Notes under the pieces: generated by a model
Databases searched by the model: none
What the model was told of the DNA's origin: nothing
The model's input: the letters and a program-made list of their open reading frames with translations, nothing else
Position numbers and translations under genes: made by a program
In this document: positions 235 to 8,291 of the stretch, piece by piece
How positions within the stretch are numbered: position 1 is the stretch's first letter
Layout of the letters: each line of letters begins with the position of its first letter
Assembly: GCA_025934635.1 (NCBI GenBank)
Contig: JAICWX010000304.1
Location: 1-10,376 of the forward strand
Reading direction: 5' to 3'
Source: Streptosporangiaceae bacterium
GTDB taxonomy: Bacteria; Actinomycetota; Actinomycetes; Streptosporangiales; Streptosporangiaceae
Length of the DNA: 10,376 bases

Positions 235-753
235 TCATCCGCAGCAGGTGCTGACGGCTGCATCCTCTGCTCCGCTGGCGGCCTGCGGGCCACCGCAGCA
301 CTGGGCGGCCTGGCCGACGGCGGGGCCGTCAAGCTGGGCCTGTACGGCGTCCGAGCGCTGTTCGTCGTCCGGGCCCCAGAAGGTGGCGCTGTCTTCCAGG
401 ACGGTGTAGATCTCCCAGCGTTCGCCGCCGGGGGATCCGGTGACCCAGAACTTGTCCTGCCGGGCGTAGCAGCAGGTGGTGTCCCGTTCGTCGACCGCAG
501 CCAGGCCGGCCTGGGCGAGCCGGGTCTGCTCGGCGTCGACCGCGTCCGCGTCGGGGACTTCGACGCCGAGATGGTTCAGGGTGCCGCCCTGGCCGGGGTT
601 CTCGAGCAGGACGAGCTTGAGCGGCGGCTCGGCGATGGCGAAGTTGGCGTAGCCGGGCTTGCGCTTGGCGGGTCCGGTGCCGAACAGGGCGGTGTAGAAG
701 GTGACGGCCTCGTCGATGTCGTTGACGTTCAACGCGAGCTGGACCCGTGACAT
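235..753 (-). CDS. arsI: ArsI/CadI-type vicinal-oxygen-chelate dioxygenase (C-As lyase family)
   Basis: A 172-residue protein of the glyoxalase/VOC fold. ArsI enzymes cleave the carbon-arsenic bond of trivalent organoarsenicals such as methylarsenite, using Fe(II) and O2. The mycobacterial relative is known as cadmium-induced CadI. Visible landmarks are Q5, H61 (in LNHLGVEV) and E114 (in RWEIY), at the metal-ligand positions, and the vicinal pair C94-C95 in DTTCCY, the arsenical-binding thiols of the family. Position 5 is His in Bacillus ArsI, while the actinobacterial branch as I recall it has Gln. The C-terminal tail after about residue 125 is low in conserved features but holds two further Cys pairs (152-153, 170-171). 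Start: ATG at 751-753 is preceded by GGAGG with 5-nt spacing; the longer reading upstream would run through arsR1. It is divergent from arsR1, and a palindrome overlaps its promoter, so repression by an ArsR is likely. Methylarsenite lyase activity is inferred. Confidence 0.9.
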   Translation of the reverse strand: MSRVQLALNVNDIDEAVTFYTALFGTGPAKRKPGYANFAIAEPPLKLVLLENPGQGGTLNHLGVEVPDADAVDAEQTRLAQAGLAAVDERDTTCCYARQDKFWVTGSPGGERWEIYTVLEDSATFWGPDDEQRSDAVQAQLDGPAVGQAAQCCGGPQAASGAEDAAVSTCCG

Positions 754-770: not shown

Positions 771-786
771 ATTGACGTTCGTCTAT
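771..786. promoter_or_regulatory. ArsR-type operator over the arsI promoter
   Basis: Imperfect inverted repeat ATTGACG-TT-CGTCTAT with 6 of 7 arm positions matching. It overlaps a plausible minus-strand promoter for arsI: -10 GATAGA at 787-782, with TGGCAA at 810-805 as a weak -35 and a 17-nt spacer. Its reverse complement matches the site at 833-848 in 12 of 16 positions (ATAGACG then GTC-AT). Location and symmetry fit a winged-helix ArsR dimer. Binding itself is inferred. Confidence 0.55.
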
Positions 787-824
787 CTCTTGTCGCTGCC
801 GAGCTTGCCACAGGACATCGATTT

Positions 825-859
825 CTGTCAATATAGACGCGTGTCGATTCCATTGACAG
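825..859. promoter_or_regulatory. arsR1 promoter-operator with nested inverted repeats
   Basis: Two symmetric elements are nested here. The outer one has perfect 8-bp arms, CTGTCAAT (825-832) and ATTGACAG (852-859). The inner one is ATAGACG-CG-TGTCGAT (833-848) and resembles the operator at 771-786. The likely arsR1 start codon (GTG 841) lies inside the inner repeat. AT-rich sequence CAATATAGA at 829-837 could serve as a -10 region for a leaderless transcript. This arrangement would let ArsR1 block both its own gene and arsI. Confidence 0.45.
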
Positions 860-1200
860 TGATCAGCCCGGCCGAGACAGCCGCCTGCTGCGCCCCGCTG
901 ACCGCGCAGCCGCTGAGCATGGAGCAGGCCGAGCAGGTCGCGCCGCTGCTGAAGGCACTGGCCGACCCGGTCCGGTTGCGGCTGCTGTCCCTGGTCGCCT
1001 CGCGCCAGGGCGGCGAGGCATGCATCTGCGACCTGAACGAGGCATTCGACCTGACCCAGCCGACGATCAGCCACCACATGAAGGTGCTGCACGACGCCGG
1101 CCTGGTCGACCGGGACAAGCGCGGCGTGTGGGTGTATTACCGGATCCGCCCGCAAGCCCTGTCGGCCCTGGCTGCCCTGATCGGCTGCCCGCTGCCGTAG
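841..1200 (+). CDS. arsR: ArsR/SmtB family arsenic-responsive repressor 1
   Basis: A 119-residue winged-helix repressor that would release DNA on binding trivalent arsenic. The core runs from about residue 30 (LLKALADPVRLRLLSLVAS) through the recognition helix (LTQPTISHHMKVLHDAGLV, about 71-89) to the wing (GVWVYYRI). Two thiol sets are visible. C16-C17 sit in the N-terminal ETAACCAP segment; C61 and C63 sit in EACICDL at the start of the first HTH helix. An N-terminal Cys pair plus a Cys near the α3/α4 region resembles the inter-subunit As(III) site described for Corynebacterium glutamicum ArsR. Start: GTG 841 gives the family-like N-terminus (V/M)SIPLT; a TTG at 772 would add 23 unlikely residues across the promoter. 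There is no Shine-Dalgarno sequence, so the mRNA may be leaderless. It is divergent from arsI and 68 bp upstream of arsR2. The function is secure, the exact inducer is inferred. Confidence 0.9.
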   Translation: MSIPLTVISPAETAACCAPLTAQPLSMEQAEQVAPLLKALADPVRLRLLSLVASRQGGEACICDLNEAFDLTQPTISHHMKVLHDAGLVDRDKRGVWVYYRIRPQALSALAALIGCPLP

Positions 1201-1244: not shown

Positions 1245-1273
1245 TTCATCGTCTATCGTCGATTAACGATGAA
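1245..1273. promoter_or_regulatory. Operator overlapping the arsR2 start codon
   Basis: Perfect 8-bp inverted repeat, TTCATCGT (1245-1252) and ACGATGAA (1266-1273), around a smaller palindrome ATCG-T-CGAT (1255-1263). The right arm contains the arsR2 ATG. The segment TCGTCTATC (1249-1257) is identical to nine bases of the arsI-side operator (779-787). TATCGT (1254-1259) fits an actinobacterial -10 (TANNNT) and would give a leader of only a few bases. Autoregulation of arsR2-arsM is inferred. Confidence 0.5.
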
Positions 1274-1598
1274 TGATGTGGAGCCGCTGGACCGGCAGAC
1301 CGCCGACATGTACGCGGCCTGGTTCAAGGCGCTGGCGGACGGCACCCGGGTGCAGATCGTGTCGCTGCTGGCCCGGGCCGGGCGGCCGCTGACGGTCAAG
1401 GAGATCGTCGCGGCGGTGCCGGTGGGCCAGTCGACCGTGTCGGAGCACCTGCGGCAGCTCGCCGCGGTCCGGTTCGTGCTGGCCGAGGACCGCGGCACCT
1501 CCCGCCTGTACCGGATCAACGAGAACTGCGTGACCTGCTTCCCCACCGCCGCCGACTTGGTGATGGGCAGGCCATCGCCCGTCCCGCTGGGAGGATGA
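1269..1598 (+). CDS. arsR: ArsR family regulator 2 with C-terminal CxxC
   Basis: A 109-residue winged-helix protein with core WFKALADGTRVQIVSLL (19-35), HTH around 42-64 (VGQSTVSEHLRQL) and wing EDRGTSRLYRI (73-83). It differs from ArsR1 in having no Cys in the N-terminus or the HTH helix. Its only cysteines are C87 and C90 in NENCVTCFPTAAD, a C-terminal position used by a separate class of ArsR sensors. Some two-cysteine members with C-terminal thiols prefer methylarsenite, which would suit a gene directly upstream of arsM. Start: ATG 1269. No Shine-Dalgarno is visible, so the transcript is probably leaderless or very short-leadered. A long open frame upstream from 1020 overlaps arsR1 out of frame and is not real. 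The gene overlaps the ATG at 1595 and is probably translationally coupled to arsM. The family is certain, the ligand preference is inference. Confidence 0.87.
   Translation: MNDVEPLDRQTADMYAAWFKALADGTRVQIVSLLARAGRPLTVKEIVAAVPVGQSTVSEHLRQLAAVRFVLAEDRGTSRLYRINENCVTCFPTAADLVMGRPSPVPLGG
1590..1594 (+). promoter_or_regulatory. Ribosome binding site deciding the arsM start
   Basis: GGAGG abuts the ATG at 1595 with no spacer, but stands 6 nt before the ATG at 1601. The second ATG is therefore the better start, although the first gives an ATGA overlap with the arsR2 stop. Confidence 0.65.
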
Positions 1599-1600
1599 CC

Positions 1601-2338
1601 ATGGTTTCGGTGAACCGTGACGAGATCCGGGCGGCGGTCGCCGCCCGGTACGCGGGACTGGCCAAGGCCGCGCAGGCGGGCCAGGCAATCACCGACGGCG
1701 ACCCGGACGGAGGGAGCTACTGCGGCGCTGCTGGGTACCTGGACGTCGGCGCTCTGCCCGAGGCGGCGGTGCGGGCCAGCCTGGGCTGCGGCAACCCGGT
1801 CGCGGTAGCAGGCCTGCGGCCCGGTGAGACGGTGCTGGACCTGGGCTCAGGCGGCGGCATCGACGTGCTGCTATCCGCCCGCCGGGTCGGCCCGGCTGGG
1901 AAGGCCTACGGACTGGACATGACCCAGGAGATGCTGGACCTCGCCCGGGCCAACGCGGAGGCGGCCGGCGCGGGCAACGTCGAGTTCCTGCGCGGCCAGA
2001 TCGAGACGATCCCGCTGCCGGACGGCTCGGTGGACGTGATCATCTCCAACTGCGTGATCAACCTGTCCACCGACCGGGCCGCCGTCTTCGCCGAGAGCTT
2101 CCGCGTCCTGCGGCCCGGCGGCCGCCTGGGCATCTCCGACATCCTGGCCGAGGACCACCTCACCCCCGTCCAGCAGGCCGAACGCGGCGCCCAGGTCGGC
2201 TGCATCGCCGGGGCGCCCTCCTTCGCCGAGTACCACGACGGCCTGACCCGCGCCGGGTTTGCCGGCATCACGATCACCACGACCCACCAGGTCGCCGACG
2301 GCGTGCACTCGGCGATCATCCGCGCGGTCAAGTCTTGA
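1601..2338 (+). CDS. arsM: Arsenite S-adenosylmethionine methyltransferase
   Basis: A 245-residue class I SAM methyltransferase that converts As(III) to methylated arsenicals in the cytosol. The SAM-binding motif I is [16 protein letters not shown] (about 78-93), followed by the acidic GLDMTQEML loop (about 104-112). Numbering from the ATG at 1601, the three cysteines expected of ArsM are present: C63 (SLGCGNPVA), C151 (ISNCVINLS) and C201 (VGCIAGAPS). They correspond to the conserved As(III)-coordinating trio of the algal enzymes. The extra N-terminal pair seen in many ArsM proteins is reduced here to one Cys, C41 (SYCGAAG). Length is slightly short of the usual 260-280 residues because the C-terminal domain is compact. 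The stop overlaps the TTG start of the next gene, so arsR2, arsM and the GNAT look like one operon. With arsI nearby, this cell may both make and break methylarsenite. Confidence 0.93.
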
Positions 2339-3108
2339 CCGGGCCGGCCCCCGCGGCGGGCACGCGCATTGAGCCGATGACCGGAGCGCATGCTGACGCC
2401 GTGCTCGCGATCTACCAGGCCGGGATCGAGGAAGGGAACGCCACCTTCGAGACCCGCGCGCCGGACTGGGCGGCGTTCTCCGCGGCCCGGCTGCCCGCCC
2501 ACCGGTTCGTCGCGACCACTCAGGGCCGGGTCGCCGGGTGGGTAGCCGCCACGGCGGTGTCCGGCCGCCGCGTCTATGCCGGGGTGGTCGAGCACTCCGT
2601 CTACGTCGACCCCGCCGCCCGCGGCCGCGGCATCGGCCGCCAGCTCCTGGACAGGCTGTTCGCCTCGGCTGAGGCGGCCGGGATCTGGACCATCCAGTCG
2701 GGGATCTTCCCGGAGAACACGGCCAGCCTCGCCCTGCACCAGGCGGCCGGGTTCCGCGTCGTCGGGACCCGGGAACGAATCGGCCAGCATCACGGCCGCT
2801 GGCGCGACGTCATCTTGATCGAGCGGCGTAGCCGAGCGGTGTTACTCGTTCGCCAGGACCGGACACAGCAGCCGCACGCTGAGACCGAGCCGGACCGCGC
2901 TGGCGGTCACGGCGACGGCTATTGCCCATCCGGCTGCCGGATCGGCGGCCAGCACGCCGATGATCATGAAACCGTCCAGCGCGGCGGTTCCGACGCAGCC
3001 GGCCGTACCCGCCCGGCCAACGGGCCGGTACCCGATACCGCGGGCGGCGACTGCCAGCAGCGCCACGACGGTAACAAGCAGGGCGCCAGGCACGATCCTG
3101 GCCGCTAG
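2335..3108 (+). CDS. arsN: GNAT N-acetyltransferase, phosphinothricin/arsinothricin type, with anomalous C-terminal run-on
   Basis: The first ~166 residues form a complete GNAT domain of the phosphinothricin acetyltransferase branch. Landmarks are IYQAGIEEGNATFET (26-40), the acid E87 in VVEHSVYV, the acetyl-CoA loop RGRGIG (96-101), FPENTASLALHQAAGF (125-140) and HGRWRDVILIERRS (153-166). Relatives encoded in ars operons (ArsN1) acetylate the amino group of arsinothricin, and other members act on phosphinothricin. The substrate here is inferred from context. Start: TTG 2335 overlaps the arsM stop (TTGA); the ATG at 2377 would cut into the first β-strand (RIEPM). The family normally ends near residue 166. 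Here the frame continues for about 91 residues, and 267 bp of it lies antisense to the HAAS-domain gene. A TAG out of frame at 2829-2831 sits exactly where the stop would be expected, so a one-base deletion may have removed the native end. The extension (2833-3108) is probably not functional protein. Confidence 0.75.
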   Translation: MTGPAPAAGTRIEPMTGAHADAVLAIYQAGIEEGNATFETRAPDWAAFSAARLPAHRFVATTQGRVAGWVAATAVSGRRVYAGVVEHSVYVDPAARGRGIGRQLLDRLFASAEAAGIWTIQSGIFPENTASLALHQAAGFRVVGTRERIGQHHGRWRDVILIERRSRAVLLVRQDRTQQPHAETEPDRAGGHGDGYCPSGCRIGGQHADDHETVQRGGSDAAGRTRPANGPVPDTAGGDCQQRHDGNKQGARHDPGR

Positions 3109-3566: not shown

Positions 3567-4112
3567 ATGGTCACCGCCAGCCGGATCCTGGGCGACCAGG
3601 TGGGCTCCACCGCCCCGGCCTTCCTGGCCTTCCTGGCCGTCCACGTCGCCGCTGGCCTGACCGCGGTGATCACCGGTGCGGTCGCTGCGCTGGCCCGCAA
3701 GGGCAGCCCCCGCCATATCCGGGCCGGCCGCTGGTTCTACCGGGCCATCACCGCCGTGTTCGTCACCGCAACCGCCCTAGCCGCGATGCGCTGGGCCCAG
3801 GACTGGTACCTGGTTGTCCTCGGCGCGGTGGCGTTCACCGCCGCCACCGCCGGATACCTGCACCGTCGCCGCCACCGCTACGGCGACACCGGCCACATTG
3901 CCGGGATGGGCATCGCCTACGCCGCCATGCTCACCGCGTTCTACGTCGACAACGGGCCGCATCTGCCGCTGTGGGACCGGCTGCCTCCTCTGACGTTCTG
4001 GTTCCTGCCCGCCGTCATCGCCTTCCCCGTCATCACCCGCGCGATCATCCGCGCGAAGAGCAAAGCGCGGGCATTACGATCCGCCGGTATCACAGTCCGC
4101 CGGTCTAGCTAG
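3567..4112 (+). CDS. DUF2306-like integral membrane protein
   Basis: A 181-residue, strongly hydrophobic protein with five predicted membrane segments (about 19-42, 57-74, 80-98, 110-128, 142-161). Between the first two is KGSPRHIRAGRWFYRA (45-60), which matches the DUF2306 signature loop with an H-x-x-x-G arrangement after a basic stretch. The family has no established function; the conserved histidines have prompted suggestions of heme or quinone association, which I cannot test here. Start: ATG 3567 with AAGAAGG 6-7 nt upstream (3554-3560). A second open frame from 3524 in another phase is a shadow. The stop (4110-4112) overlaps the convergent ArsR-ArsC stop (4105-4107), so the two genes meet tail to tail by 8 bp. 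It is probably controlled by the palindrome at 3515-3539, together with the HAAS gene. Confidence 0.72.
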   Translation: MVTASRILGDQVGSTAPAFLAFLAVHVAAGLTAVITGAVAALARKGSPRHIRAGRWFYRAITAVFVTATALAAMRWAQDWYLVVLGAVAFTAATAGYLHRRRHRYGDTGHIAGMGIAYAAMLTAFYVDNGPHLPLWDRLPPLTFWFLPAVIAFPVITRAIIRAKSKARALRSAGITVRRSS

Positions 4113-4782
4113 TCGCGGCCAGCATCGGCGCGAGCCGCCCGACCCGGCCGCTGAGGTCGGCGACGGCCGCGTCGAAGCTGGCGGGATCACCGGCCGGGAC
4201 CGGATCCGGGACGGACCAGTGCACGGCAGCCTGGCCGCCGAGTTCCTCGCGAGCCATATCGCAGACCGTAACGACGAGATCGCCGTCACCGTGGACTTCG
4301 CCTAGGTGGCGGGGCCGGAGCCGGGGCAGCGGCAGGTGGTGGCGGCGGGCGGCGTCGATCGCGCCCGGGTCGATGGCGGGCCCGGGACGGGTGCCGGCCG
4401 AGACGGCCGGCACGGGGCTGGCCCGGCGCCACAAGGCAGCGGCCAGGTGGGAACGCGCCGAATTGGCCGTGCACACGAACAGCACCCGCCGCGCCGCCCG
4501 GGCGGGCGGCGCGGCCCGGCCGTCCAGGGCGCCGGGGACCAGCCGCAGGTAGGTGCGGCGGCGGTCGCCCTCGGACCGGCGGCGGGCGATGATCCCGGCC
4601 TGCTCCAGCACGTGCAGATGGTGCGCCAGCAGGTTCGACGGCATGGCCAGCAGGGCCGCCAGCTCGGACGGGGAAGCGTCCCCGGCCAGCAGCGTGTCGG
4701 TGACGAGCAGCCGGGCCGGATCGGCCAGCGCGGCGTGCACCGCGGCGCGCCGGGCCAGCTCAGAAGTTCGCTCATCATACAT
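4105..4782 (-). CDS. ArsR-ArsC fusion: winged-helix regulator fused to LMW-phosphatase-type arsenate reductase
   Basis: A 225-residue two-domain protein. Residues 1-90 are an ArsR-like winged helix (VHAALADPARLLVTDTLL 15-32; HTH SPSELAALLAMPSNLLAHHLHVLEQAG 37-63; wing RRRSEGDRRRTYLRLV). Residues 98-225 are a low-molecular-weight phosphatase-like arsenate reductase. The P-loop is C104-TANSA-R110-S111, the CX5R nucleophile loop, with D193 in WSVPDPV as candidate general acid. The usual thioredoxin-coupled second and third cysteines are incomplete: only C174 (VTVCDMARE) is present. A mycothiol/mycoredoxin-coupled mechanism is therefore possible in an actinomycete. The HTH domain has no cysteine at all, so it cannot bind As(III) by the normal thiol site. 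Start: ATG 4780-4782, since the longer frame to 4836 runs across the promoter and palindrome. It is probably leaderless. It is divergent from the aquaporin gene with 37 bp between starts. Confidence 0.87.
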   Translation of the reverse strand: MYDERTSELARRAAVHAALADPARLLVTDTLLAGDASPSELAALLAMPSNLLAHHLHVLEQAGIIARRRSEGDRRRTYLRLVPGALDGRAAPPARAARRVLFVCTANSARSHLAAALWRRASPVPAVSAGTRPGPAIDPGAIDAARRHHLPLPRLRPRHLGEVHGDGDLVVTVCDMAREELGGQAAVHWSVPDPVPAGDPASFDAAVADLSGRVGRLAPMLAATS

Positions 4783-4818
4783 TGACTCAATCTTGACTGA
4801 GCTAACTTCACCTGTCAA
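4783..4818. promoter_or_regulatory. Divergent promoter-operator of arsRC and the aquaporin gene
   Basis: Minus-strand promoter: TTGACA (4818-4813), 17-nt spacer, CAAGAT (4795-4790). A transcript would begin near 4783, immediately before the arsRC ATG. An imperfect inverted repeat CTCAATC-TT-GACTGAG (4786-4801, 6 of 7 arm positions) overlaps that -10 and has the same 7-2-7 layout as the arsI-side operator. On the plus strand, TTGACT occurs at 4783-4788 and 4793-4798, and TAACTT (4803-4808) could act as a -10 for the aquaporin gene. The spacing from 4783 is short (14), so the plus promoter is less certain. Confidence 0.55.
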
Positions 4819-4819
4819 C

Positions 4820-5629
4820 ATGAGCGGCGTGAGCAATGCACCCGTCCCGCGGTGGCGCCGCCTGCTGGCCGAGTTGCTGGGCAGCGCGTTCCTGGCCGCG
4901 CTGGTGATCGGGTCCGGGATCGCCGCGCAGCGGCTGTCGCCGGGTCAGGCGGGCCTGGAGCTGGCGGAGAACGCGGCGGCGACGGCGGCCGGGCTGTTCG
5001 CGATCATTCTGATGTTCGGGCCCGTCTCCGGCGGTCACTTCAACCCGGTGGTGTCCTTCGCCGACGCCGCCTTCGGCGGCCTGTCCTGGCGGGACGCCGC
5101 CGCCTACCTGCCCGCGCAGATCGCCGGGTGCACCGCCGGGGCGGTCACGGCGAACCTGATGTTCGCCCTGCCCGCAGTCAGCATCTCGGCCAAGCACCGG
5201 GCCTCCGGGGCGCACTTCCTGTCCGAGGCAATCGCCACCGCCGGGCTGCTGCTGGTCATCTTCGCCCTCGCCCGCTCCGGCCGCGGCTCGTCGGCCCCGG
5301 CGGCAGTAGGCGCCTATATCGGCGCCGCGTACTGGTTCACGTCCTCGACGAGCTTCGCCAACCCGGCCATCACCATCGGCCGGATGTTCTCGGACACGTT
5401 CGCCGGGATCGAGCCGGGCTCGGTCCCGAGCTTCATCGGCGCCCAGGTCATCGGCGGGGCCCTCGCCGTCGCCGTCATCAAGGCGCTGTACCCCGCCATC
5501 ACCTCGGCCGACGCCGCCAGCATCGTCGTCCCGCACGGCGCTGGCACCGCCGCAGAACCGGCACGCGCCGCCCATGACGGCGTACCGCCGTCCGCCAGCC
5601 AGCAGGCCGGCCCGGCACGGTCCGGCTGA
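4820..5629 (+). CDS. aqpS: Aquaglyceroporin (MIP family), AqpS-type arsenite channel
   Basis: A 269-residue channel of the major intrinsic protein fold with six membrane segments. The first half-helix motif is GGHFNPVVSF (71-80, NPV in place of NPA) and the second is SFANPAITIGR (178-188). In classical aquaporins an Arg follows the second NPA and narrows the selectivity filter. Here Ile184 occupies that place and Arg comes four residues later, so the pore may be wide enough for As(OH)3. AqpS-type channels in ars operons let arsenite made by ArsC leave the cell down its gradient. Context fits: arsRC is divergent next door and no ArsB/Acr3 pump is present in the window. Start: ATG 4820 (MSGVSNAPVPRWRRLL), with the first helix at residue 14 onward; longer frames upstream cover arsRC antisense. 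The last ~35 residues are Ala/Pro/Gly-rich and probably disordered. The gene is followed by the flavoprotein after 27 bp. Arsenite as substrate is inferred. Confidence 0.87.
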   Translation: MSGVSNAPVPRWRRLLAELLGSAFLAALVIGSGIAAQRLSPGQAGLELAENAAATAAGLFAIILMFGPVSGGHFNPVVSFADAAFGGLSWRDAAAYLPAQIAGCTAGAVTANLMFALPAVSISAKHRASGAHFLSEAIATAGLLLVIFALARSGRGSSAPAAVGAYIGAAYWFTSSTSFANPAITIGRMFSDTFAGIEPGSVPSFIGAQVIGGALAVAVIKALYPAITSADAASIVVPHGAGTAAEPARAAHDGVPPSASQQAGPARSG

Positions 5630-5656: not shown

Positions 5657-7261
5657 ATGCACGTGGTCATGATCGGCGGCAGCGACGCCGGGATCAGCGC
5701 GGCCCTGCGGGCCCGCGAACTCGATCCGGCCGCCGACGTCACGGTGGTCCTGGAAGACGCCTACCCGAACTTCTCCGTCTGCGGCATCCCCTACTACGTC
5801 TCCGGCGAGGTCAGCCACTGGCGCAACCTGGCCCACCGCACCGCCGCCGACCTCGAAGCCGCCGGGATGCGGCTGCGGACCGATACCACCGCCCGGCGGA
5901 TCGACGTGGCCGGCCGCAAGCTCCTGGTCACCACCCCCGGCGGCGGCGAGGAGGTCCTCGGCTACGGCAAGCTGGTCATCGGCACCGGCGCCGTCCCGGT
6001 CCGCCCGCCGATCGCCGGCCTGTCCGGCCCGGACGCCCTCGGCCCCGCCGACGGGGTGCACCTGCTGCACTCGATGGGCGACACCTTCGCCGTCACGCGG
6101 ACCCTGGAGGAAACCGCCCCGGCCAGCGCGGTCATCGTCGGCGCCGGGTACATCGGCCTGGAGATGGCCGACGCCCTGACCGTCCGCGGCCTGCACGTCA
6201 CCCAGATGGAGCAGCTGCCCGAGGTGCTGCCCACCGTCGACCCGCAGCTCGGCGCCCTGGTGCACGCCGAGCTCGCCGATCACGGCGTGGAGGTCCTGAC
6301 CGGCACCACCGTCCGGGCCATCAGCCAAGCCCCGCCCGGCGGATCAGGACAGCTGGAAGTGCAGGCCACCGCGGCCGACGGCACAGTGGTGACACGCCTG
6401 GCTGGCCTGGTCCTGGTCGTCGTCGGGGTCCGGCCCGAGACCGCCCTGGCCGCCGACGCCGGGGCCACGCTCGGCGCCAAGGGAGCGATCGCGGTCGACC
6501 CGATGATGCGGACCGGCCTGCCCGACGTGCTCGCGGCCGGGGACTGCGTGATCACCCATCACCGGCTGCTCGGCCAGACCTACCTGCCGCTCGGCACCAC
6601 CGCGCACAAGCAGGGCCGGGTCGCCGGGGAGAACGCCCTCGGCGGCACCCGCCAGTTCGCCGGCAGCCTGGGCACCCAGGTCGTCAAGATCTTCAGCCAG
6701 GCCGCCGCCCGCACCGGCCTGCGCGACCACGAAGCCGCCGCGGCCGGGTTCGACCCGGTCACCACCGAAACCGCCGCCGATGACCACAAGGCCTACTATC
6801 CCGGCAGCCACCGCATCACCCTCCGGGTTACCGGCGACCGTGCCACCGGGCGGCTGCTCGGCATGCAGCTGTTCGGCCACAAGGACGCCGGGATCGCCAA
6901 GCGCGTCGACATCGCCGCGGCCGCGATGTTCCACGGCATGACCGTGGATGAGGTCAGCGACCTGGACCTGTCCTACACCCCACCGCTCGGCAGCCCCTGG
7001 GACGCCGTGCAGATGGCCGCCCAGGCCTGGGTCCGCCAGACCCGGACCCGCTTAACCTCTCCGCTCCATCCGCGAAGAAGCACTCATGCCAGCGCACATC
7101 GCCCGGCCTGCCTCCCGGCCCCGCGTCCCGCGCAACTGGCGACCCGCGCCGCGGCGGGTGGCCTGGGCGGTGGTGGCCATGAAGAAACGGAGCCGCCTCT
7201 CGGAATCGAACCGGTGACCTACGCATTACGAGAGGACCGGTCGCCTGCTCTGGTGGCTTGA
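5657..7261 (+). CDS. FAD/NAD(P)-dependent disulfide reductase-like flavoprotein (CoA-disulfide reductase/NADH oxidase type), with C-terminal run-on
   Basis: The first ~463 residues form a complete pyridine nucleotide-disulfide oxidoreductase. The N-terminal FAD site is MIGGSDAGISAALRARE (5-21); a single redox Cys, C42, lies in YPNFSVCGIPYY as in CoA-disulfide reductase and Nox proteins. The NAD(P) site VIVGAGYIGLEMADAL starts near 159, the second FAD motif is AAGDC (D296), and a C-terminal dimerization domain ends in LDLSYTPPLGSPWDAVQMAAQAWVRQTR (436-463). It would use NAD(P)H to reduce a thiol disulfide, persulfide or O2. In this operon it may supply electrons for ArsC recycling or act on an arsenothiol; that is inference. 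Start: ATG 5657 with AGGAGAG 6-7 nt upstream. The family ends near residue 463, but this frame adds about 71 Pro/Arg/Ala-rich residues and runs across the tRNA fragment at 7190-7232. A TAA in another frame at 7053-7055 lies where a native stop would be expected, so the end may be altered by a small indel. Confidence 0.85.
   Translation: MHVVMIGGSDAGISAALRARELDPAADVTVVLEDAYPNFSVCGIPYYVSGEVSHWRNLAHRTAADLEAAGMRLRTDTTARRIDVAGRKLLVTTPGGGEEVLGYGKLVIGTGAVPVRPPIAGLSGPDALGPADGVHLLHSMGDTFAVTRTLEETAPASAVIVGAGYIGLEMADALTVRGLHVTQMEQLPEVLPTVDPQLGALVHAELADHGVEVLTGTTVRAISQAPPGGSGQLEVQATAADGTVVTRLAGLVLVVVGVRPETALAADAGATLGAKGAIAVDPMMRTGLPDVLAAGDCVITHHRLLGQTYLPLGTTAHKQGRVAGENALGGTRQFAGSLGTQVVKIFSQAAARTGLRDHEAAAAGFDPVTTETAADDHKAYYPGSHRITLRVTGDRATGRLLGMQLFGHKDAGIAKRVDIAAAAMFHGMTVDEVSDLDLSYTPPLGSPWDAVQMAAQAWVRQTRTRLTSPLHPRRSTHASAHRPACLPAPRPAQLATRAAAGGLGGGGHEETEPPLGIEPVTYALREDRSPALVA
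7190..7232 (-). repeat. Partial tRNA-Thr(CGU) 3' half (att-site copy)
   Basis: Matches 9754-9796 in 41 of 43 positions; differences are C/A at 7199/9763 and G/A at 7214/9778. It covers the anticodon loop, variable loop, T-arm and acceptor 3' strand of the intact tRNA-Thr, in the same orientation. The two differences break two T-stem pairs, and no matching 5' half exists beyond 7232, so it cannot be a functional tRNA. This is the standard trace of integration into the 3' half of a tRNA gene. Confidence 0.85.
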
Positions 7262-7584: not shown

Positions 7585-7872
7585 ATGACATCTCCAGGTG
7601 GGCGGCCGACTAATATCAGTGTCCGCCAATTCGTGGCGGACTCCGGGGCCGTAACGCGCGGGCTGCGGCAAGGGCGCGCGTACACGCTCACTCTCAACGG
7701 TGAGCCGCTGGCAAAGATGATCCCGATCCAGCGGCGCCGGGCGGTCCCGAAGGATGAAGTTCTAGCTATCTTCGCCACGGCGCCGGTGTTCGACGTGGAC
7801 GAGCTCCATGCCGACCTGGACGAGGCCGTCAGCCAGGATCTGAGCGACCCATACGAGGGGACCGGCCTGTGA
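7585..7872 (+). CDS. Phd/YefM-family antitoxin
   Basis: A 95-residue protein. Residues 10-50 (NISVRQFVADSGAVTRGLRQ, then AYTLTLNGEPLAKMIPI) match the Phd/YefM DNA-binding fold, in which a short helix precedes a strand ending in P-x-A-x-hydrophobic. The C-terminal third is acidic (FDVDELHADLDEAVSQDLSDPYE, 74-90), the usual toxin-wrapping segment. It would neutralise the PIN toxin and repress the operon. Start: ATG 7585, probably leaderless behind the TATGAT box. The open frame continues upstream to 7258, but that part has no family features. Its last codons overlap the GTG of the toxin gene (7869), indicating translational coupling. Codon use is a little less GC-biased than in the ars genes (e.g. 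CTA for Leu near 7762), consistent with acquisition. Confidence 0.82.
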   Translation: MTSPGGRPTNISVRQFVADSGAVTRGLRQGRAYTLTLNGEPLAKMIPIQRRRAVPKDEVLAIFATAPVFDVDELHADLDEAVSQDLSDPYEGTGL

Positions 7873-8291
7873 CGGCGCACGACGCCGCCATCGTGGATAC
7901 CAGCATCATCGCCGCGCTCAAGCTCTATGACCCGGCCGAGCTGCCCGGCACGATCTTGATCACGGCGGTGACGCTAGGCGAGTTGTCCTTCGGCCCGCAC
8001 GCGACCGACGATCCGGTCAAGCGAGCCGGACGAGTGGCCGTGCTGCAACATGTGGAGGCCACCTTCGACCCGCTCCCGTACGATCAGGGCGCGGCCAGGC
8101 TCTACGGTCAGATTTGCGCTGCGGTGCGCGCGGCGGGACGGGAGCCGCGCAAACGAGCCTCGGACCTGATGATCGCCGCGACGGCAGCCAGCAACCAGCT
8201 CCCGCTCTATACGGCTAACCCAGGCGACTTCAAAGGCGCCGGAGGCTTCGTCGAGGTGGTCGGCCTCCAAGCGCGGCCGAACGATCTCTGA
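7869..8291 (+). CDS. vapC: PIN-domain toxin, VapC family
   Basis: A 140-residue PIN-domain ribonuclease. The acidic metal-binding set is visible: D10 in IVDTSIIAAL, E38 in TLGELSFGP, D99 in ASDLMIAATA, and the N117/D120 region in YTANPGDFKG. VapC toxins cleave tRNA or rRNA when released from antitoxin; the exact RNA target cannot be read from sequence. Start: GTG 7869 overlaps the antitoxin stop by 4 bp, the normal arrangement for such pairs. The length fits the family and no damage is visible, so the pair may be active. It stands close to the tRNA end of a putative island, where toxin-antitoxin pairs often stabilise mobile DNA. Its 3' end is 21 bp from the convergent tetR stop. Confidence 0.87.
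   Translation: MTAHDAAIVDTSIIAALKLYDPAELPGTILITAVTLGELSFGPHATDDPVKRAGRVAVLQHVEATFDPLPYDQGAARLYGQICAAVRAAGREPRKRASDLMIAATAASNQLPLYTANPGDFKGAGGFVEVVGLQARPNDL

What the first reader, a model, noticed from the sequence alone, without database searches (positions are those of the whole stretch)
4105..4782. ArsR-ArsC fusion whose DNA-binding domain has no cysteine
The winged-helix half (residues 1-95) contains no Cys, so the usual thiolate As(III) site is absent. The only cysteines are C104 (the catalytic nucleophile) and C174, both in the reductase half. The operator overlaps its own promoter. Inference: the protein may sense arsenate through its catalytic domain, coupling reduction or substrate binding to release of DNA, a one-component enzyme-repressor.
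Basis: partly seen in the sequence, partly recalled or inferred. Interest (0 to 1): 0.75.

Follow-up and report, generated by a model that had tools for sequence, protein, structure and literature searches.

The report
Repressor fused to arsenate reductase
A soil actinobacterium carries a gene switch physically fused to an arsenic-reducing enzyme; the switch half lacks the sulphur atoms that usually sense arsenic, so the enzyme half may do the sensing, which still needs a test.

Summary
The minus-strand gene 4782..4105 encodes a 225-residue ArsR-type winged helix fused to an LMW-phosphatase-type ArsC; its only cysteines are C104 and C174. Absence of cysteine in one such protein is near chance (0.41), but it is a family trait: 67 of 73 actinobacterial relatives have none before the catalytic one, while C104 and C174 are kept in 73 of 73. 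The operator is larger than stated: two tandem dyads (4785-4802; weaker 4770-4787) cover the -10 box and start codon of a predicted leaderless promoter, and an aquaporin gene diverges from the same 37 bp. The model lacks the ArsR helix alpha5; ArsC follows the winged helix directly. In 38 of 44 loci a separate arsC exists, yet the fused active site stays intact. Alphaproteobacterial fusions sit beside gapdh-arsJ (6 of 6 fetched), and one clade has lost the As(III) triad, though another keeps it. I conclude: probably an autorepressor-reductase that reads arsenic through its ArsC half; DNA binding, effector and mechanism are not shown. Such fusions are known in print; I found no test of their sensing site in the papers I could search. 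New variant of a known kind.

The parts
4105..4782 (-). arsRC fusion gene, 225 aa (P0001)
4534..4782 (-). winged-helix DNA-binding half, residues 1-83, no Cys; helices 2-18, 22-33, 38-45, 49-61, wing 65-69/77-81, no alpha5
4117..4500 (-). LMWPc/ArsC domain, residues 95-222
4471..4473 (-). codon of C104, P-loop nucleophile by homology (CTANSARS)
   Evidence: equivalent in 73 of 73 relatives
4453..4455 (-). codon of R110, P-loop arginine
   Evidence: invariant in 66 rows
4261..4263 (-). codon of C174, aligned with Cys82 of Trx-type ArsC; no Cys89 equivalent
4204..4206 (-). codon of D193 (acid of the PDP motif, role by homology)
   Evidence: invariant in 66 rows; a P[DN]P string somewhere in the chain in 70 of 73
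4785..4802 (.). operator dyad 1, over the -10 box
4770..4787 (.). operator dyad 2, weak in this window, spans the start codon
4813..4818 (-). -35 box TTGACA of arsRC
   Evidence: sequence; TTGAC 28-45 bp before the ATG in 40 of 45
4790..4795 (-). -10 box CAAGAT of arsRC, 17-bp spacer; transcription start predicted at or next to the ATG (leaderless)
   Evidence: inference. The generic sigma-70 scan found no promoter here
4820..5629 (+). divergent MIP/aquaporin (AqpS-like candidate As(III) channel)
   Evidence: Pfam MIP 1.5e-25; function inferred
5657..7261 (+). FAD/NAD(P) disulphide oxidoreductase, CoA-disulphide-reductase-like (under that model's cut-off), probably co-transcribed with MIP
772..1200 (+). 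free-standing ArsR with CC and CxC thiol motifs (6 Cys)
1269..1598 (+). second free-standing ArsR, Cys 87 and 90
1595..2338 (+). ArsM arsenite methyltransferase
   Evidence: NF008823 265.5 bits over cut-off 263
235..735 (-). ArsI/CadI family VOC protein (start codon not fixed)
   Evidence: NF041414 188 bits over cut-off 116

Best explanation
A single-chain repressor and arsenate reductase. A dimer holds the tandem dyads over its own leaderless promoter and the divergent aquaporin promoter (inferred from DNA). Arsenic is read by the ArsC half, not by the winged helix: arsenate enters the P-loop, C104 attacks it, C174 resolves the adduct, arsenite leaves, and a C104-C174 disulphide remains (chemistry inferred from pI258 ArsC, recalled). 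As there is no Cys89 equivalent to pass the disulphide on, the domain should stay in that state until an outside reductant resets it. Because alpha5 is gone and ArsC follows the winged helix directly (model), this state could loosen DNA binding, switching on the fusion, the aquaporin that lets arsenite out, and the flavoprotein beside it. Shown here by computation: architecture, conservation, dyads, context. Inferred: DNA binding, effector, latch. My confidence in steps: autorepressor on these dyads 0.85; ArsC half catalytically competent 0.75; sensing through the ArsC half 0.55; arsenate turnover as the trigger 0.35.
For: No HTH Cys in 67 of 73, C104 and C174 equivalents in 73 of 73; free-standing ArsRs in the window and the same loci have at least 2 Cys in 29 of 29. 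Dyad at up to one mismatch within -70..+20 of the fusion's start in 48 of 73 loci (32 of 44 close, 16 of 29 distant); only 2 further places in all 73 loci, both before the Trebonia aquaporin gene; about 0.7 places expected in shuffled sequence. At exact match 5 of 8 whole genomes have it, only at the fusion's start, reversed control 0. Separate arsC in 38 of 44 loci, yet the fused active site stays intact. Model pLDDT 92.5, pTM 0.88, no alpha5; an alphaproteobacterial fusion keeps alpha5 and has pTM 0.64. Alpha fusions sit beside gapdh-arsJ, an arsenate export pair, in 6 of 6 fetched; the R. erythropolis fusion is divergent from pstSCAB. In the alpha tree the rows without the CCx5-7C site form one clade (17 rows, SH-aLRT 98, quick search).
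Against: No experiment here. One alpha group keeps the As(III)-type triad beside ArsC (118 of 120 listed hits). The window shows no separate arsC, nor do 6 of 44 loci (L001-L004, L011, L024), so there the domain may be kept simply as the enzyme (the Trebonia genome of L002 does have two others). Zero Cys in one protein is near chance. 25 of 73 loci have no dyad at one mismatch near the start. At one mismatch the pattern is at background genome-wide in the 4 genomes searched. Dyad 2 is poor in the window (4 of 9 symmetric pairs). In Trebonia a free-standing ArsR gene ends before the aquaporin's dyads, so that copy might be its operator.
Confidence: 0.55

Rival explanations
1. Product sensing: As(III), not As(V), is the effector, bound by C104 and C174 inside the ArsC pocket, so the protein is an arsenite-responsive repressor whose site has moved to another domain.
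For: C104 and C174 equivalents are the only thiols kept in 73 of 73; they align with the catalytic Cys and Cys82 of Trx-type ArsC, and an arsenite-bound pI258 ArsC is in the PDB (1lju, title).
Against: Alpha fusions fetched lie beside gapdh-arsJ, an arsenate-export context. No third conserved thiol for a three-coordinate site.
Confidence: 0.2
2. Plain gene fusion: the winged helix no longer senses arsenic; it is a weakly autorepressing module, the ArsC half is just the enzyme, and arsenic control of the island comes from the thiol-bearing ArsRs next door.
For: Cys-bearing ArsRs lie in the same island (window 772-1200 and 1269-1598). In the genome of L003, the nearest kin, no other ArsC was found (a MAG, so incomplete).
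Against: 11 of 44 loci have the dyad at the fusion's start and no ArsR found at 1e-8 in the stretch held: L005, L007, L017, L022, L034, L036, L037, L039, L040, L041, L043 (L022 has a weaker ArsR match). 38 of 44 loci have another arsC.
Confidence: 0.2
3. Redox or phosphate sensor: the P-loop reads phosphate, or C104-C174 reads oxidation (mycothiol state), and arsenic is incidental.
For: A related LMW phosphatase is solved with phosphate bound (2wja, title); one relative lies beside pstSCAB.
Against: Known arsenic genes lie near the fusion in most of the 44 loci; phosphate is abundant in all cells (general knowledge).
Confidence: 0.05

Closest known systems
Actinobacterial ArsR-ArsC fusions, clusters C4 and C7 of Firrincieli et al. 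2019 (PMC6514093; passages read)
   Same: Same domain order and phylum; the paper's R. erythropolis PR4 locus-tag range includes the pREL1 fusion, which is 54.9% identical to this one over 86% of it.
   Different: It classifies by sequence; the 12 passages I read (of 17) do not discuss missing cysteines, operator or effector of the fusions.
ArsRC2 of Microbacterium sp. A33 (Achour-Rokbani et al. 2010; recalled, paper not held; cited in PMC6205960)
   Same: Recalled abstract: an unusual arsRC2 fusion that negatively regulates its operon, so repression by such a fusion has been reported.
   Different: I could not read whether the sensing site was located; sequence not compared here.
S. aureus pI258 / B. 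subtilis thioredoxin-type ArsC
   Different: No Cys89 equivalent; fused to a DNA-binding half.
TtSmtB of Thermus thermophilus (PMC5658604; passages read)
   Same: An ArsR/SmtB protein reported to be released from DNA better by arsenate than by arsenite.
   Different: Free-standing, three cysteines, no reductase domain.
ArsR of the V. cholerae var operon (PMC9601151; passages read)
   Same: Beside gapdh-arsJ; altered As(III) motif; the authors suggest it probably senses As(V).
   Different: Free-standing; the authors say more work is needed on its effector.
ArsR-M fusion of Brevundimonas M20 (PMC10190100; passages read)
   Same: Repressor fused to an arsenic enzyme, reported to bind its own promoter.
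   Different: Methyltransferase, not reductase.

Membership tests
ArsR/SmtB winged-helix repressors | ArsR-type wHTH domain by profile | tested here: met
   HTH_5 25 bits over cut-off 22 and HTH_20 27.4 over 27; the NCBIfam metalloregulator model scores 46.6, under its cut-off of 55
ArsR/SmtB winged-helix repressors | thiol As(III) site in or beside the winged helix (arsenic-sensing ArsRs) | tested here: not met
   no Cys in residues 1-103
ArsR/SmtB winged-helix repressors | C-terminal alpha5 helix after the wing | tested here: not met
   absent from the predicted model
ArsR/SmtB winged-helix repressors | dyad operator overlapping the own promoter | tested here: met
   (sequence only; binding not shown)
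LMW-PTP-fold arsenate reductases (ArsC) | P-loop CX5R and PDP acid | tested here: met
   CTANSARS and PDP, invariant in the 66-row alignment
LMW-PTP-fold arsenate reductases (ArsC) | same fold | tested here: met
   the same lists hold tyrosine phosphatases, so fold alone does not prove an arsenate reductase
Thioredoxin-type ArsC (TIGR02691) | Cys10-Cys82-Cys89 triad (recalled) and profile cut-off | tested here: not met
   only two Cys; 19.5 bits against cut-off 174.3
Mycothiol-type ArsC (Cg_ArsC2) | no Cys82/Cys89 equivalents, works with mycoredoxin | tested here: inconclusive
   C174 is present where 3rh0 has none; activity not testable here
Known actinobacterial ArsR-ArsC fusions | ArsR then ArsC in one chain, homologous over nearly the full length | tested here: met
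Known actinobacterial ArsR-ArsC fusions | arsenate reduction and arsenic-dependent repression | not testable with these tools
   needs purified protein

The most novel reading that the evidence does not exclude
A single-turnover latch: the fused reductase is the sensor, and one reduction of arsenate leaves a C104-C174 disulphide with no third cysteine to clear it, which drops the repressor from DNA until a cellular reductant (possibly the flavoprotein encoded next door) resets it. Gene control would then report the reaction itself, As(V) reduced and reductant spent, not the concentration of a bound ligand.
Probability: 0.27. Interest if true: 0.78.

Novelty: new variant of a known kind. Interest (0 to 1): 0.55.

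Why it matters
ArsR repressors are the textbook arsenite thiol sensors and the base of arsenic biosensors (general knowledge). Relatives of this protein are widespread: 57 of 396 genomes drawn from the phylum of Trebonia match at E 1e-12 or better, in 3 of them with the reductase half only. A family with no thiol site in its DNA-binding half but a conserved two-cysteine reductase could be an enzyme that reports its own turnover to a promoter. That would give an arsenate-specific sensor, a natural contrast to arsenite sensors, and the question can be put to one gel-shift series.

Tried and rejected
Tried without result: viral-contig scan (no relative); the window's own genome (none held or laid); phage records (one unannotated record, not followed); generic promoter and terminator scan of 4650-4900 (none found). 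Considered and rejected: that the dyads belong to the neighbouring Cys-bearing ArsR (11 of 44 loci have the dyad at the fusion and no ArsR found at 1e-8 in the stretch held; exact matches in the 8 genomes searched lie only at the fusion); that the fusion is an artefact of annotation (the 120 listed hits are 81-98% identical over 69-100% of it; 44 loci from named genome records); that the lack of Cys in this one protein is itself significant (chance 0.41). I first took the dyad as 4786-4801 from one sequence; the relatives corrected it to 4785-4802 plus a second site. The 1-mismatch search gave about as many hits as its reversed control in four genomes (15 and 17, 7 and 5, 12 and 12, 4 and 3), so no wider regulon is claimed. 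Residues 1-94 were not searched apart for fold (notes that one domain fills the list).

Limits of counts: searches list only the best 120 hits each, biased to the query; the 44 loci come from two peptide patterns in the ArsC half, and their length and flanks differ, so genes beyond the held stretch are missed (e.g. an arsC of Trebonia); of the 52 plasmid records (40 listed) I fetched 10, of which 6 are alphaproteobacterial; one search used 73 loci (L001-L044, L055-L083) and left out L045-L054 as repeats or partial matches; start codons were chosen by a rule in the script. One search counted both strands and three spacer lengths (108 matches, one shuffle per locus, 4 expected); the recount takes one spacer and counts a place once, and I quote that. 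In the tree, P0152 was skipped for want of the motif and P0279 was left out of the list by hand after one search failed; 'lost' there means no Cys in the part after residue 75, so a Cys such as C59 may remain. Free-standing ArsRs were found by similarity to the window's own two, which have Cys.

Full report
What is there. The window is part of an arsenic island: ArsI/CadI (235-735, minus), a Cys-rich ArsR (772-1200), a second ArsR (1269-1598), ArsM (1595-2338), an ArsN1-like acetyltransferase (from 2335; under that model's cut-off), the fusion in question (4782-4105, minus), a divergent MIP channel (4820-5629) and an FAD disulphide oxidoreductase (5657-7261). The nearest locus by gene order is L003, a soil MAG labelled Nocardiopsis, whose matching genes are 81-95% identical; several close protein hits are labelled Streptosporangiaceae, so the source is probably a soil actinobacterium of that neighbourhood.

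The protein. Residues 1-83 form an ArsR-type winged helix and 95-222 an LMW-phosphatase-fold ArsC. Cysteines are C104 in CTANSARS and C174 in VTVCD. R110, D193, C104 and C174 are invariant in the 66-row alignment. C174 aligns with Cys82 of the thioredoxin-type enzymes; the mycothiol enzyme Cg_ArsC2 has none there (the Cys numbers of those enzymes are recalled). In the Cys lists no relative has a Cys in the 15 residues after the C174 equivalent. The alphaproteobacterial fusions, by contrast, mostly keep both (119 of 120 in one search and 92 of 120 in the other by the script's strict motif). The actinobacterial family is therefore a two-cysteine ArsC.

Is the missing cysteine meaningful? Not from one protein: probability about 0.41. 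Across 73 actinobacterial relatives, 67 have no Cys before the catalytic one and 6 have one, at scattered positions. Free-standing ArsRs in the window and the 44 loci have two or more in 29 of 29 open frames (a sample found by likeness to Cys-bearing ArsRs). Relatives are common in the phylum: 57 of 396 genomes match at E 1e-12 or better, 3 of them with the reductase half only.

The operator. Aligning the start regions of the window and 44 relatives shows TTGAC about 37 bp before the ATG (40 of 45; 44 of 45 with variants TTG[AC][CT]), a CAAnnT-like hexamer ending 7 bp before the ATG (at least 35 of 45 as CAAnnT), and the dyad over it. This is the form of a leaderless promoter (inference; the generic sigma-70 scan found none). 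The element is ACTCAR-N6-TTGAST, often twice, 15 bp apart, at -20..-3 and -5..+13. At up to one mismatch it is found at the fusion's start in 48 of 73 loci (32 of 44 and 16 of 29), with only two other places in all 73 loci and about 0.7 expected in shuffled sequence. At exact match it was searched in 8 whole genomes: 5 have it, all at the fusion's start, and the reversed control has none; the other 3, among them the window's nearest kin, have no exact match. At one mismatch the pattern is no longer informative genome-wide. Symmetry is 4.8 and 5.2 of 9 pairs for the two sites against 2.7 in background; in the window it is 6 and 4. The two other places are both in Trebonia, where the aquaporin gene lies 3 kb from the fusion and carries tandem dyads directly upstream. 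This suggests that the channel shares the regulator, though a free-standing ArsR gene ends some 200 bp before that site.

Context. A MIP gene diverges directly from the fusion in 17 of 44 loci and in the window; a thioredoxin-type arsC does so in 10 of 44; a separate arsC lies somewhere in the held stretch in 38 of 44. The fused domain is thus usually redundant as an enzyme but keeps its active site. The exceptions are L001-L004, L011 and L024, and the window itself shows none. In the genome of L003 (a MAG, so incomplete) the only LMWPc proteins found are the fusion and one other, phosphatase-like protein, with no glutaredoxin-type ArsC and no Acr3. There the fusion may be the only reductase and the aquaporin the arsenite exit, as in the AqpS system of Sinorhizobium described in PMC6205960 (passages). 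Trebonia has two other arsC copies and no Acr3; the L011 genome has an Acr3 and an arsC match that holds a stop codon.

An independent lineage. The tblastn search of plasmids found alphaproteobacterial fusions at 28-37% identity. In 6 of 6 that I fetched, the fusion lies beside the GAPDH-ArsJ pair, an arsenate export system (PMC9601151, passages). These have a longer joint: the model of a Paracoccus member keeps helix alpha5 (77-94) and a loose linker, pTM 0.64, while the actinobacterial model has no alpha5 and pTM 0.88. One set of 120 listed hits has the CCx5-7C site in 118; another set lacks it in the 119 that have the motif, 84 of them with no HTH Cys at all and 35 with one or two elsewhere. 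On a quick tree of 52 rows the rows without the site form one clade (17 rows, SH-aLRT 98), grouped with a row with a partial and a row with a full triad inside rows that have it. This reads as loss of the As(III) site in a protein that kept its ArsC domain. It supports, but does not prove, that the ArsC half can carry the sensing. It also shows that a fusion can keep both.

How it most likely works. Repression by a dimer on the tandem dyads (confidence 0.85), catalysis at C104 with C174 resolving (0.75), sensing by the ArsC half (0.55), and arsenate turnover as trigger (0.35). In pI258 ArsC the C89L mutant was solved as a disulphide intermediate (1lk0, title; that it is Cys10-Cys82 with a looped-out helix is recalled); the present family lacks Cys89 by nature, which suggests the latch of the novel case. 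None of these steps has been measured here.

What is known. Fusions of ArsR and ArsC are described in PMC6514093 (passages) and PMC6205960, which says that if functional they would be an advantage in arsenite sensing and/or detoxification (passages). Repression by ArsRC2 of Microbacterium A33 is recalled; the paper is not held. Arsenate-preferring release from DNA has been reported for a free-standing ArsR/SmtB protein of Thermus (PMC5658604, passages) and arsenate sensing proposed for V. cholerae ArsR (PMC9601151, passages). In searches I found no paper that tests the effector or the sensing site of an ArsR-ArsC fusion; I read passages of the most relevant listings only, and most subscription papers are not in that library.

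Verdict. The kind of protein is known; the sensing mode would be a new variant.

Noticed in passing
window 4105-4112: The fusion gene and the convergent gene 3567-4112 (no Pfam match over cut-off) overlap at their 3' ends.
   Followed up: no
window 2335-3108: The ArsN1-like acetyltransferase matches its family only over residues 18-164; about 90 further residues continue in frame, perhaps a lost stop or a frameshift.
   Followed up: no
window 7869-8291: PIN-domain protein (VapC-like) with a short open frame just upstream, possibly a toxin-antitoxin pair, near the island's end.
   Followed up: partly
L088 788-4691 (R. erythropolis pREL1): A plasmid pstSCAB phosphate transporter runs divergently from the fusion gene, a hint of shared arsenate/phosphate control.
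   Followed up: no
L002 9916-9948 (Trebonia kvetii): Tandem dyads of the fusion's operator type sit directly upstream of a displaced aquaporin gene.
   Followed up: yes
L058: A relative with a 395-residue chain: eight further Cys lie beyond the ArsC pair, in a C-terminal extension.
   Followed up: no
MT835669.1 15569-16171: An unannotated record filed as a phage from human faeces encodes a relative 57% identical over 88%; possibly a plasmid or misfiled contig.
   Followed up: no
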